Below, one piece after another: positions 35,819 to 62,974 of a stretch of 64,000 nt of DNA; position 1 is the first letter of the stretch; the number at the start of each line of letters is the position of its first letter. Source of the DNA: Pyronema omphalodes (taxonomy: Eukaryota > Ascomycota > Pezizomycetes > Pezizales > Pyronemataceae); the NCBI GenBank assembly GCA_024516155.1, contig JAJJXM010000003.1, positions 806,001-870,000 on the forward strand, written 5' to 3'. The position numbers and the translations under genes were made by a program. A model generated the notes under the pieces. That model saw only the letters and a list, made by a program, of their open reading frames with translations. It was not told the origin of the DNA and did no database searches.

Positions 35819-37241
35819 TTATGCGGCAATGTCCTTCTTGAGGGTACCCATGAAGGCGTGCTTCTCCTCCTTGGTCTGGAAACCTCCGTGTCCGAACTTG
35901 GAAGAGGTGTCGATCCACTTGAGCTCGACCTTCTCGAGGGACTTGCGGGAAGTGTGGGGGAAGAGAGACTTGCGGAGAGTCATGACACGCTTCTTGACAC
36001 CAGGGCAAGATCCCTTGATCATGACGAAGTCGTTCTTGACAATACCGTAGCGGGGGAATCCTCCCATAGGGGTCTATAAGAGTTAGAGAACCGTCTTTTG
36101 ATATAGTAGGGTATTGGTAACATACGATGGTCTTCTTGGTAGTGTCGTACTCAGTGGTGGCGTTAGCCTCATCGTCTCCCTTTCCGATACGGTAGATCTT
36201 GTGGTTGACGGAAGTACGGTGGTGGTAACCGTCCTGACCAGCACGGGCAACAGTCCACTGGACGTGGTTAGGGTGCCAGGCTCCGATACAGGCGACCTTG
36301 CGGAGACCCTTGTGGGTCTTGCGAGGAAGCTTCTTGGTTCCCCAACGGGCGGTAACACCCTCGTATCCGTGTCCCTTGGTGACGGCAATGACGTCGATGA
36401 CCTCGTCCTGCTCGAAGATGGTGTCGACAGAGACGGTCTTCTCGAAGAGTCCGCGGGCGAAGTCAACCTTCTGCTCGACGGATCCTCCGTTGACCTGAAT
36501 CTCCATCAAGTGGGCCTTCTTCTGCTTAAGAGGGGTCTTGCGGATCTGGGAGTGGGCGAGAACGCGGACAACAGTGCAGTACTTCTTGATACGGGCAAGC
36601 TCGTGCTCGATGTCCTTTCCTCCCTCGGCGTGCTTCTTGGTGTACTTGGTGAAAGCCTTCTTCTTGGACTTGTACCAGTTCTTGTAGAAGCGACGGCGGA
36701 TCTCGTCGGAAAGGTGCTCAGCCCAGACGGTGGTGAGAGAGCGGAGTCCACGGGGGGTCTCGACGTATCCAACAACTCCGATAACGACGACGGGGGGAGT
36801 CTCGATGATGGTGACGGCCTCAACGATCTCCTTCTTGTGCATCTTGGCACCAGGACGCTCGAGCTCACGAACGGTGGTGGTCATACCGGCCTTGTAACCA
36901 AGGGTGGCGGTCAAGTGGACGGGCTTCTTAGCGTCATCCTTGGGGAAGGACTATATCGAAAATATCGTCAGATTTCGGCGCTGTACAATTCGTAGGAATT
37001 TTTGTTTCGAACCTTGGCCTTTCCTCTGTGTCTGGCGGCACGCTTGCGGGGCAAGAACGCGAGCGAACCGTGTCTGGGGGCTTCCTATTCGAATAATCAG
37101 AATCGTGAATTTCGTGATTTGAGGCGCGCATTTTGGTAGACATACAAATTTACGCTATTAACACATCAAAGTCAGCAATTCGTTCCTCGAGAGATTCCTT
37201 TAACAATAATTCCAAAGATCGAGTAAACGTACGTGAGACAT
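35819..37241 (-). CDS. rpl3: 60S ribosomal protein uL3 (RPL3)
   Basis: Core large-subunit protein near the peptidyl transferase centre. Five exons (minus): 37241..37233, 37154..37146, 37084..37013, 36950..36126, 36073..35819 (389 aa; yeast has 387). Exon 1 is only ATGTCTCAC (MSH). Exon 2 is a 9-nt microexon, CGTAAATTT (RKF), flanked by AATAG and GTATGT. Exon 3 starts EAPRHGSLAFLPRKRAA. Together they restore the universally conserved N-terminus MSHRKFEAPRHGS, which confirms both tiny exons. Exon 4 carries the W-finger region (HRKTHKGLRKVACIGAWHP-like residues near 215-255). Intron 3 starts with GTTCGA, unlike the other donors. Codon use is strongly biased. An open antisense frame results from that bias. 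A Homol-D-like box lies 121 nt upstream. Confidence 0.97.
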
Positions 37242-38377
37242 CTTGAACCGTGAGCTCGCTGGATCGTCCGGGGTGCTGGTTGATGGCTGTTGGGTTAGTC
37301 GAAGTCGTTCGGCTTCGCTGGGCGCATTGTGTGATTGAGAAATTGCTAGGCCCTGCTTGTTTGTGACTGCTTTTTTCCCGGGAAATCCACTGTGTGGGCG
37401 CTAAGTCACCCTATGCGCTAGTGTTACCCATCACCAATTATCCTAGCACACCTAACCCTGCCAAACTACGCTTCATGGAGCTTTTCGACAAGTCTTCGAT
37501 ATATTTTTGGCGATAAATTGTGTCGTTGTACGAAGCGCAGATTTCTCTTGTTCTATGGAATTACGGTCGTGGTCCTTCAACCCTTTGAATTACAGTTCTG
37601 GGAATCCTCGGATGCGGAAACACTAGTTCCCGGCCTGACTGGCGCTCGGACGTCTATTCTCTGTGCAAGTCGGTTCGTCACCAACTCAAGGGACTTAAGC
37701 CCACTGTTCTTTAGAATCTGCGTATACAGAAGTGAGTTGTGGGTCGGGTGAGTACCATTCGGAACCCCATGCCGCCAATCTACTTGAGAAGCGTTGATGG
37801 CCATTGAAATTGTGGTGGATTGTTGGCAAATACGCCTCTGTGTAGGACTGGCCGCAACGTGGGTTATGTCCCATCTAGCTTTCCATACTTGAGGGTAGAG
37901 ATCTTCCATTTCTTCGTTTCATAGGCTTCGGGAATGTCGCGTGCCGCGCCGTGCGCAATCTTGAAATGGCGTTGGCCGAAGATGGTTGGCCAGGAACACT
38001 AAAGATGGGAAGAAGCGAGTTGGCTGCCTAGCAGGGCTGGCGAAGCGGGGTTCAGTACGCTGGGCTGAAACGCATGTCCCAGCTAGAGTAGGGTGCCCTG
38101 AAGAACAGGATGAGTGTCTGCAGGTACTTACTGTGTCTAACGGCTTTCTAGTCGAATCACAACCACGACACGGAACAGTGCTTGAAGCTCTCCATGCCGA
38201 ATCACTCATTCAGCATTGATTCTTTCGCCGACCACGGACAAGAGTCACATACTTAACACGTATGCATTTACATCTCACGAATAGAAGTACCATATCGATT
38301 GAACTTGATGAGGAATGTCGCCCACCGAAGGACGTCTCTTCCAGTATTATCTCTGATTTATACACATCTATAAACTT
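37242..38377. other. uL3 promoter and Dbp6 3' flank
   Basis: No convincing gene. The right-hand part is downstream of dbp6 and the left-hand part upstream of rpl3; the genes run in the same direction. Minus-strand frames at 37577-37909 and 37919-38209 (110 and 96 codons) resemble nothing I recognise and lack supporting features. Confidence 0.5.
37362..37369 (-). promoter_or_regulatory. Homol-D-like box (CAGTCACA) upstream of uL3
   Basis: Reads CAGTCACA on the strand of the gene, 121 nt before the uL3 start codon. This is the ribosomal-protein promoter element known from fission yeast and inferred for filamentous ascomycetes. The same 8-mer precedes eL34 and uS7 in this window. Confidence 0.7.
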
Positions 38378-60967: not shown

Positions 60968-62974
60968 CTACTCCTCCTCTTCCTCCTCTTGCTCATCCTC
61001 CTGCGTATCTCTCAAGAGATCGTCAACGTTAATACCAGACATTATCAGTTCATTTCTCAGTTCGTCCAAATGGGCTCTATCGGAATCGGTCAACGGCTCT
61101 CCACGGTCGGTTTGGCCTCGTTCAGCTGCTCTGAACCACGGCAGTATGTTTGTCAGCAAACCAGCAAGCGTACCACCTCCTGGAAGCATTGAAAGGTCTG
61201 GTGTAGGTGTGGGCGCGTTGGCGGTGGGGAGCAAAGATGTCGTGAGTTCATAGCTTGGGAGATTGTCGTGTGGTGGTAGAGGATCGAAAACATGAGTTGG
61301 ACGTTGTGTAATTGACCGAGGAAGAAGACCGGTGATGGCAGGAATATCTGTAAGAAGAACATGCCTGGCAAGTGAAAGCGAGACATCCTTTTGAGCCGAC
61401 GGAAGTAATGATACATCTTCCAGAGGAGAGTTAAATTTACTCACGCCCTCTATCAAGAACTTTTCGAAGTCTGGATGCTTCCAGAGATCCTTTGTGCGCT
61501 CAATGTAAAGCTTAGAAAGAATTTGCTGACGGATGTTGTCCTCGGGTAGGATTTGTCCCCAAAGTGCTCCTGGGAGGTCGGCATCAACACCAAGTTCTCC
61601 GTACAAAAGATGGGGCATCCAAGGGAATTTCGCAATCGCTTTAGCAAGGTATTCATGTGCCTTGGTTGTGTTTCCAAGTTGAACTTGTGCAAGTGCCGAC
61701 GAAAATGCGATGTTGGGAAGGTCGGAGTATTTCTTTTGAAGGGCAGAATGTTCGGCTAGTCCAAGGATCACATCTGGCTGGCGCGACTTAAGAGCGAGGA
61801 AGTCGATAATCAGGGACATCTCATAAGGATCTCCTTCGGGGTCCATTGCCAGGAGAAGTCGGGCAAACTCCTCTGCCGTGCGCCAAGTTCCCCGTTGGGC
61901 TAAGTTCTTTATGTATCTCCAACCACATAACCAGAGCTCACGGTTTTCCGGTCGGCAGAAGGATAGCCTCGCCGTTCCTTCAGAGAGCTTCTGCTGAAAT
62001 GTGGAGTGTAGGGAGCGACCAAGAGAGAAAAGAGCTCTTTCTAGAAGATCACCGGCCACGTTATAATCTCGCTGGTGGTGGAAGATTTCGGAGCACTGTA
62101 GAAGAGTGGTGATGTGGTAAGGGTTATGCTGGAGAAGCGCTATCATCCGCTCGGGGTCTATTAATGCTGTTAGTAAAATTTATACAACAAATAAGCTTAG
62201 ATACTTACCCATTGCTTCTACACATATACTAAACTCTCGCTGTACACCTTGGTATGTCTTGCTGTGGACGAATCGGTAATATGTTGTACCAGTCTCTGGA
62301 TCCGAATGCTCAATTTCCATGCCTAAACCACCACTTCCGGAATTTGGCCACTCGTCTTTGGGCTGTATGAAAGTGTTTTTCCGCCCCTTATTGAGAGCTC
62401 TTCCCCCAGAGCCCGGAATCCGCTGGAGTCTGGCACCGGCCTGTCGTGCAGCACCGCCCCTGGGCCGTTCATTGCCTTCAATGTTTTTCAACGCGTCCTT
62501 TCCAAATAATCTCATCATCTCATTCCCGGCGTCGAGGTTTCTGGAGTCGATCTTAAGGACACTAGAAAGAGGCTGTTCTTGTTGTTCGGAAGTTGATTTT
62601 GAGGCAGGCTTCTTTGATGGAGCAAGGCTCAATTCCTTTAAGGCGCGATCGATGTCATCGTCATCCTCTTTTTCCTCATCTCTGTCTGCGGCCTTAGCCT
62701 TTCCCTTAGCCTTCTTCTTCTTTTTGTTCTTTTTCTTGCTCTTTGAAGCGGTTGATGCTACAGGCTTCTCCGGCTCCGGCTCAGACTCGGCTTCTTCGTC
62801 CTCGTCATCTTGGTCGCGCTCGTCTGGAATGTCGAGAAGTGCAAACAAGCTAGGCTTCGCGGTAGGTGCTGGTTCGTCCTCTTCGCTTTCTGAAACATCC
62901 TCCGAGACTGGATCCGGGTTATTCGATTTGAGCAGTTCAAGCTCGCGTGCTTTACGGAGGGCTCGGCTGGACAT
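60968..62974 (-). CDS. rqc1: Ribosome quality control subunit Rqc1 (TCF25 family)
   Basis: Component of the RQC complex that acts on stalled 60S-nascent chain complexes with Ltn1, Rqc2 and Cdc48; Rqc1 promotes K48-linked ubiquitylation. Two exons (minus): 62974..62209 and 62166..60968, separated by a 42-nt intron with a GTAAGT donor (654 aa), the shortest intron seen in the window. MSSRALRKARELELL is followed by acidic and Lys-rich stretches (KSKKKNKKKKKAKGKAKA), then ALKNIEGNERPRG, RALNKGRKNTFIQPKDEWP and YRFVHSKTYQGVQREFS. The TCF25 domain includes DPERMIALLQHNPYHITTLL, RPENRELWLCGWRYIKNLA and FPWMPHLLYGELGV. The C-terminal tail is Glu/Asp-rich. Family order and length fit. Confidence 0.94.

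What the first reader, a model, noticed from the sequence alone, without database searches (positions are those of the whole stretch)
35819..62974. Ten of twelve consecutive genes belong to ribosome assembly and translation
In order: uL3, Dbp6, Trm140-type enzyme, (beta-carbonic anhydrase), Ytm1, (ARPC3), eIF2B-epsilon, eIF1A, eL34, uS7, uL10, Rqc1. They cover ribosomal proteins, 60S assembly, tRNA modification, initiation and stalled-ribosome clearance. Strands are mixed, so co-transcription is excluded. uL3 sits next to Dbp6, and these interact genetically in yeast. Eukaryotic genomes show weak clustering of such genes, but this density over 27 kb is striking and could mark a co-regulated chromatin domain.
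Basis: partly seen in the sequence, partly recalled or inferred. Interest (0 to 1): 0.75.

Follow-up and report, generated by a model that had tools for sequence, protein, structure and literature searches.

The report
Dense translation-gene neighbourhood in Pyronema
In a cup fungus, ten of twelve neighbouring genes make or run ribosomes; this is unlikely to be chance, but it looks like a dense case of a known habit of fungal ribosome genes to sit near each other, and the evidence favours gene-by-gene switches over a special shared domain.

Summary
Simulated random placement does not give this. The clustering is not peculiar to this locus: of 58 other ribosomal-protein (RP) families placed in the same genome, 29 lie within 30 kb of another RP, with 24 RP-RP pairs against 1.6 expected, while 28 non-translation genes give no pair. 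Such clustering is published for ascomycetes. The proposed co-regulated chromatin domain is not supported, though untested by expression data. Many RP genes carry a promoter element, an extended HomolD box (TGTGACTGCTTT), one by one, in clusters and alone; in this block only uL3 and eL34 have it. Contig lengths put Dbp6 and eIF2B-epsilon together only in Pyronema and Sphaerosporella (2 of 10 species; in 4 of the other 8 both contigs exceed 200 kb), and Dbp6 with TCF25/Rqc1 in 0 of 8. Ordinary in kind, unusual in density.

The parts
35819..37241 (-). uL3 (RPL3)
   Evidence: PF00297 E=1.8e-137; ATG at 37241
37362..37373 (.). extended HomolD element TGTGACTGCTTT upstream of uL3
38381..40751 (-). 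Dbp6 (DEAD-box 60S assembly factor)
   Evidence: PF00270/PF00271; 91% to Pyronema domesticum Dbp6 over 74% of query; ATG at 40751
40752..40936 (.). 185-bp spacer between the divergent Dbp6 and Trm140-like start codons
40937..42086 (+). tRNA m3C methyltransferase, Trm140/METTL6 family
   Evidence: Pfam methyltransferase domains; METTL6 chains E=1.2e-49
45553..46203 (+). beta-carbonic anhydrase, main exon (not translation-related); 5' end not placed
   Evidence: PF00484
46745..48139 (+). Ytm1
   Evidence: NLE and WD40; ytm1 chain 8esq_p E=1e-101
49023..49607 (-). ARPC3 of Arp2/3 (not translation-related); 5' exon not placed
   Evidence: Arp2/3 subunit 3 E=5e-13 for 49332-49607
50481..52797 (-). 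eIF2B-epsilon
   Evidence: PF25084 and W2 PF02020; 98% to P. domesticum over 90% of query
52798..53259 (.). 462-bp spacer between divergent eIF2B-epsilon and eIF1A; holds one AGTCACA core (53091) but not the HomolD octamer
53260..53810 (+). eIF1A (3' end approximate)
   Evidence: PF01176; ATG
55011..55022 (.). extended HomolD element TGTGACTGCTTT upstream of eL34
55188..55990 (+). eL34 (3' end approximate)
   Evidence: PF01199; ATG
57125..57885 (-). uS7 (RPS5); terminal exon not placed
   Evidence: PF00177; ATG at 57885
58096..58103 (.). HomolD octamer CAGTCACA upstream of uS7
58916..58998 (-). C/D-box snoRNA Afu_298 (RF01507), about 185 nt past the uL10 stop, same strand
   Evidence: 54.9 bits, cut-off 40; uL10 stop near 59183 read
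59183..60315 (-). uL10 (P0)
   Evidence: PF17777 and PF00428; ATG
60968..62974 (-). Rqc1/TCF25
   Evidence: PF04910 E=2.5e-83; Rqc1 chain 9ofv_v E=1.5e-15

Best explanation
The block is a dense case of a genome-wide habit: in this Pyronema, RP genes, and less clearly other translation genes, gather in neighbourhoods of tens of kilobases. Shown: the cluster, the RP-RP clustering relative to controls, and a promoter element carried gene by gene by a share of the RPs. Inferred: co-expression comes mainly from each gene's own promoter (HomolD-type for many RPs, something else for assembly and initiation factors, shared spacers for Dbp6/Trm140 and eIF2B-epsilon/eIF1A). Also inferred: rearrangements that bring constitutively active genes together are tolerated or mildly favoured because such regions are permissive, so partners change between lineages while the level of clustering persists.
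For: 24 RP-RP pairs within 30 kb among 58 RP families placed outside this cluster (expected 1.63 if uniform); 29 of 58 RPs have an RP neighbour; 28 control genes have 0 pairs (expected 0.37); label permutation p=0.030, 0.00035, 0.0085 at 10, 30, 100 kb. Leaving out contigs C2 and C180, 33 RPs still give 6 pairs against 0.54. Another four-RP group: uL11, uL15, uS15, eS4 in 29 kb of C2. TGTGACTGCTTT: 47 exact sites against 4 for the reversed pattern; 21 are in 5.7-kb-spaced pairs; of the other 26, 11 lie within 1 kb of a mapped RP (expected 0.06), and 2 more at eL27 and eS12/eL36; without the three sites that suggested the motif, 10 of 23. The published conserved divergent pair L21/S9 (PMC2871058, passages) appears at C2:1017-1018 kb as eL21/uS4, a positive control for the map.
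Against: No expression data. 25 of 58 RPs are on two contigs, so the pairs are not independent. The control set is small (28) and chosen by me. RP-control pairs also exceed uniform expectation (3 vs 0.53, 4 vs 1.60, 20 vs 5.34 at 10, 30, 100 kb) and control pairs do at 100 kb (3 vs 1.24), so part of the effect is general gene crowding. For 12 translation-factor and assembly genes the tendency is weak: 3 of 12 near an RP against 3 of 28 controls (p=0.24); counting each other, 5 of 12 against 3 of 28 (p=0.039; on the smaller 43-RP map p=0.07 and 0.006). The octamer is missing upstream of 5 of 11 RPs checked elsewhere and of uL10. The permissive-region step is untested.
Confidence: 0.65

Rival explanations
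1. A co-regulated chromatin domain: the 27 kb is switched as a unit and the order is kept by selection.
For: Density; adjacent RP and assembly pairs in yeast are more tightly co-regulated (PMC3500266, PMC6001612, passages).
Against: In the block the extended RP element is at uL3 and eL34 only; different contigs for Dbp6 and eIF2B-epsilon in 8 of 10 species and for the pairs with TCF25 in 11 of 11 and 8 of 8; no expression effect of clustering in T. reesei.
Confidence: 0.12
2. Retained ancestral linkage: an older translation-rich block kept in Pyronemataceae and eroded elsewhere, with no present function.
For: Dbp6 and eIF2B-epsilon share an 86-kb contig in Sphaerosporella. RPs concentrate on two contigs.
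Against: Different contigs in Geopyxis, Choiromyces, Tuber melanosporum and Peziza, all of at least 200 kb. Different contigs do not exclude the same chromosome.
Confidence: 0.2
3. General housekeeping compartment: genes of central functions crowd together away from repeats, and translation genes are simply numerous among them.
For: RP-control pairs exceed uniform expectation (20 versus 5.34 at 100 kb) and 3 of 28 controls lie within 30 kb of an RP.
Against: Control-control pairs within 30 kb are 0, and label permutation still favours RP-RP pairs (p=0.00035).
Confidence: 0.2
4. Chance, picked out because many windows were read.
For: Category chosen after the fact; first-stage reading covers many windows.
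Against: Random placement almost never gives 10 of 12, and RPs cluster elsewhere in the genome against controls.
Confidence: 0.05

Closest known systems
Adjacent pairing of RP and ribosome-biogenesis genes in ascomycetes (PMC3500266 passages with Table 2 rows; PMC7653285 passages)
   Same: Non-random proximity, all orientations, partners differ between species; N. crassa 22 of 115 RPs adjacent (p=3.9e-15), A. nidulans 16 of 132 (p=1.5e-7)
   Different: In S. cerevisiae the groups are primarily of two (PMC6001612 passage); here ten members in a run of twelve and RP groups of four within 30 kb. Criteria differ (immediate adjacency there, distance here)
Loose clusters of the translation category (KOG J) in Trichoderma reesei (PMC4812632 passages)
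   Same: Filamentous ascomycete, translation and ribosome category clustered over tens of genes
   Different: Loose there, dense here; expression found unaffected there, untested here
HomolD core promoter box of fission yeast RP genes (PMC10253590 passages)
   Same: Octamer CAGTCACA/TGTGACTG in either orientation upstream of RP genes
   Different: Here often extended to TGTGACTGCTTT and not seen at every RP; function not tested
Conserved divergent RP pair L21/S9 (PMC2871058 passages)
   Same: Found here at C2:1016.6-1018.5 kb as divergent uS4/eL21
   Different: Elsewhere in the genome, not part of the given cluster

Membership tests
Non-random clustering of RP/ribosome-biogenesis genes in ascomycetes | Members nearer each other than random placement | tested here: met
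   24 RP pairs within 30 kb against 1.63 expected; 6 against 0.54 without C2 and C180
Non-random clustering of RP/ribosome-biogenesis genes in ascomycetes | Excess over other housekeeping genes | tested here: met
   label permutation p=0.00035 at 30 kb, 0.030 at 10 kb, 28 self-chosen controls; for translation factors and assembly genes only p=0.24 or 0.039
Non-random clustering of RP/ribosome-biogenesis genes in ascomycetes | Partners change between lineages | tested here: inconclusive
   Dbp6 and eIF2B-epsilon on one contig in 2 of 10 species; contig lengths only, gene order in relatives not read
Non-random clustering of RP/ribosome-biogenesis genes in ascomycetes | Tighter co-expression of clustered members | not testable with these tools
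   no expression data held
Co-regulated chromatin domain | Shared regulatory element over the members | tested here: not met
   extended HomolD at uL3 and eL34 only; PAC core GATGAG 1 of 10, CGATGAG 0 of 10, RRPE 0 of 10 upstream regions; unknown elements are not excluded
Co-regulated chromatin domain | Common chromatin state with boundaries | not testable with these tools
   no ChIP or accessibility data
Co-regulated chromatin domain | Gene order kept by selection in relatives | tested here: inconclusive
   different contigs in most species compared, but gene order itself could not be read
HomolD-type RP promoter | CAGTCACA/TGTGACTG upstream of RP genes | tested here: met
   uL3, eL34, uS7, uL4 on C156, not uL10; of 11 RPs in six stretches elsewhere, at uL18 and uS11 (shared spacer), uL15, uS15, eS4, uS5, not at uL11, eS19, uL22, uL14, eL37. 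Met for many, not all
HomolD-type RP promoter | Directs initiation 39-52 bp upstream of the start site | not tested
   no transcript starts available

The most novel reading that the evidence does not exclude
Pyronema has drawn its RP genes into a few translation neighbourhoods (16 of 58 placed RP families on one 1.07-Mb contig and 9 on a 0.49-Mb contig, together 2.6% of the assembly), beyond the pairs described in other fungi; the 27-kb block, the only one fully annotated here, joins RPs with assembly, initiation, tRNA-modification and quality-control genes under selection for joint expression.
Probability: 0.2. Interest if true: 0.55.

Novelty: new member of a known kind. Interest (0 to 1): 0.3.

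Why it matters
If RPs are drawn together this strongly in one genome, Pyronema, with its published developmental transcriptomes (PMC3778014, passages), is a good place to test whether gene neighbourhood adds anything to promoter-based control of ribosome production: clustered and isolated RPs with the same promoter element can be compared directly. For this locus alone the result is mostly deflationary.

Tried and rejected
Instead 30 ORFs, 27 from the flanks and 3 from window 1-30 kb, picked for length and coding score and not at random, were scanned: 24 had a Pfam family, about 22 genes, of which 4 are translation- or ribosome-related (uL4, Gcn2, Rrn6, an RF-1/PCRF release factor).

PAC and RRPE as a shared element: GATGAG 1 of 10, CGATGAG 0 of 10, RRPE 0 of 10 upstream regions. 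AGTCACA in 5 of 10 upstream regions counts one shared spacer twice, so 4 independent sites. The extended motif was read off uL3, eL34 and uL4.

Gene order in relatives could not be read: by their descriptions the genome collections are prokaryotic, viral, plasmid or E. coli, and metagenome scans were capped at 0; I tried none of them. I compared contig lengths in the best-120 listings, read by eye for 21 species. Paecilomyces variotii (different strains) and Aureobasidium melanogenum (clusters of many members) were left out, and one of two Trichoglossum TCF25 rows was used. Equal length is taken as the same contig. TCF25 of P. domesticum was not in the listing.

RP, control and factor queries were matched to proteins by query position, by hand. 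Dropped rows: second copies of uS8, eS8, eS19, eL30, eS27, eEF1A, GAPDH, aconitase, citrate synthase and tubulin, and actin-related, polymerase, phosphatase and AAA paralogues. The eL30 copy kept is a close call; eL36 and eL38 matches are weak (E about 1e-5 and 1e-4). uS10, transketolase and ARF1 gave no match in the listings. The weak PF00297 match at C176:67.6 kb was fetched but not examined.

Papers: no paper held all terms for Afu_298 or for Homol-D with Neurospora and Aspergillus; PMC6173580 had no HomolD passage. By the titles and abstract starts listed, searches show no description of RP clusters in Pyronema; that absence rests on these searches only. Odds: after the recount weakened the translation-factor result, the main confidence was lowered from 0.70 to 0.65.
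Full report
What was checked. The window is C156:806001-870000 of a 60.77-Mb, 232-contig assembly. The nearest proteins are from Pyronema domesticum (Dbp6 91% over 74% of the query, eIF2B-epsilon 98% over 90%) and Pyronema omphalodes (TCF25 94% over 95%), so the organism is a Pyronema or close kin.

The twelve genes. Pfam and PDB sequence searches confirm the assignments, with one limit: the tRNA methyltransferase is of the Trm140/METTL6 m3C family, its subtype unresolved. 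Ten start codons were placed. Dbp6 and the methyltransferase diverge from a 185-bp spacer, eIF2B-epsilon and eIF1A from a 462-bp spacer. ARPC3 lies on the minus strand. A C/D snoRNA (RF01507) lies about 185 nt past the uL10 stop. One ORF scored as coding in the span, 45175-45537 plus, is unassigned.

Limits of the cluster. To the left come a gene with a bZIP match below its cut-off, a kinase, a TPR protein and a Sin1/Avo1 protein; a gene with the kinase and HGTP_anticodon2 domains of Gcn2 (name recalled) is at C156:797-802 kb and uL4 at 774-775 kb. To the right come a flavin reductase, an Rrn6 protein and GMP synthase, then phospholipase D. So translation genes are sparser but not absent outside the block.

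Is it chance? Under random placement in 13,369 genes (the P. confluens count, PMC3778014, passages), four RPs in twelve genes occur in 0.2% (79 RPs) or 1.0% (115 RPs) of simulated genomes; ten of twelve from a 1,000-gene category in 0 of 3,000 and from 1,300 genes in 1 of 3,000. The class was defined after the fact, so the independent test is the rest of the genome.

Genome-wide test. With concatenated yeast-like RP queries I placed 58 RP families outside this cluster and outside uL4, one locus each. Within 30 kb there are 24 RP-RP pairs (expected 1.63 if uniform); 29 of 58 RPs have an RP neighbour. The 28 non-translation genes have 0 pairs among themselves (expected 0.37) and 4 pairs with RPs (expected 1.60). 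Label permutation gives p=0.030, 0.00035 and 0.0085 at 10, 30 and 100 kb. An earlier pass with 43 RPs gave the same picture. C2 (1,072,389 bases) holds 16 of 58 and C180 (489,050 bases; lengths) 9 of 58, against 2 and 0 of 28 controls (Fisher p=0.00045; the two contigs were picked after seeing the map). Without them 33 RPs give 6 pairs against 0.54 expected, and 9 of 33 have a neighbour. A map point that could be checked came out right: uS4 and eL21, a published conserved divergent pair (PMC2871058, passages), are neighbours at C2:1017-1018 kb.

Beyond RPs. Twelve translation-factor and assembly genes show only a weak tendency: on the full map 3 of 12 lie within 30 kb of an RP against 3 of 28 controls (p=0.24); counting each other too, 5 of 12 against 3 of 28 (p=0.039). 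On the smaller map these were p=0.07 and 0.006. C222:43-142 kb is another mixed neighbourhood: eIF2-gamma, eIF2-alpha, uL14, eL37, eRF1, eS28 and eL18, with fructose-bisphosphate aldolase, a control gene, among them.

Promoters. AGTCACA, the HomolD core, is within 400 bp upstream of 5 of 10 cluster genes (background 3.6% of random 400-bp windows), four independent sites. The full octamer is at uL3, eL34 and uS7, and at uL4 outside. TGTGACTGCTTT occurs exactly three times in 224 kb, upstream of uL4, uL3 and eL34, and 47 times in the genome against 4 for the reversed pattern. Twenty-one of these sit in pairs about 5.72 kb apart, as LTRs would; of the other 26, 11 are within 1 kb of a mapped RP (expected 0.06), and two more at eL27 and eS12/eL36. 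Thirteen are not near a mapped RP; about 20 RP families remain unmapped. The element marks many RPs, clustered or alone, but not all: of 11 RPs in six stretches elsewhere, 6 have the octamer upstream (two share one spacer) and 5 do not; uL10 lacks even the core within 400 bp. In fission yeast the octamer is an RP core promoter element working in both orientations (PMC10253590, passages).

Relatives. Contig lengths in the protein listings serve as a coarse linkage test. Dbp6 and eIF2B-epsilon share a contig length in P. domesticum (2,627,735) and Sphaerosporella brunnea (85,926), and not in 8 other species with both; in 4 of those 8 both contigs are at least 200 kb. eIF2B-epsilon and TCF25 share none in 11 species, Dbp6 and TCF25 none in 8. 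For P. confluens and Tuber a low overall synteny with many regions of microsynteny is published (PMC3778014, passages).

Reading. The density is real and the genome clusters its RPs, but the locus fits the pattern already described for ascomycetes: family-level clustering kept while partners change (PMC7653285, PMC3500266, passages), with effects on expression reported in yeast and not found in T. reesei. The simplest account is per-gene promoters plus loose gathering in permissive regions; the second half of that is inference. A chromatin domain remains possible but nothing here calls for it.

Noticed in passing
window 58916-58998, minus: C/D snoRNA Afu_298 (RF01507) about 185 nt past the uL10 stop on the same strand; may be processed from the uL10 transcript or independent.
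   Followed up: partly
own genome, contigs C2 and C180: 16 of 58 placed RP families on the 1.07-Mb contig C2 and 9 on the 0.49-Mb contig C180, far above their share of the assembly.
   Followed up: partly
own genome, contigs C56, C112, C179, C186, C198, C199, C209, C213, C221, C228: 21 of 47 exact TGTGACTGCTTT sites lie in pairs about 5.72 kb apart, as in the two LTRs of one retrotransposon family: an RP-type promoter element may sit in the LTRs. No sequence of these was looked at.
   Followed up: no
C156:797350-802333, left of the window: A Gcn2-type gene (kinase and HGTP_anticodon2 domains) lies about 54 kb from eIF2B-epsilon, which acts in the same pathway; uL4 lies a further 22 kb out.
   Followed up: no
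C156:870765-871649, right of the window: An Rrn6 protein (polymerase I factor) is the next gene found past Rqc1 after a flavin reductase.
   Followed up: no
C1:1172458-1174795: uL22 and Nop1 (fibrillarin) are divergent neighbours about 1 kb apart, with no AGTCACA core in the stretch fetched.
   Followed up: no
own genome C162:370 and 393 kb: Two eEF1A matches with equal identity, 23 kb apart on the same strand.
   Followed up: no
window 30000-33100: Low-GC simple-repeat tracts with long meaningless ORFs (KEKEKE, SFSFSF, DTDTDT) between the kinase gene and the cluster.
   Followed up: no
window 42100-45100: Three kilobases inside the cluster without a coding candidate and of low GC (0.39 at 42-44 kb).
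   Followed up: no
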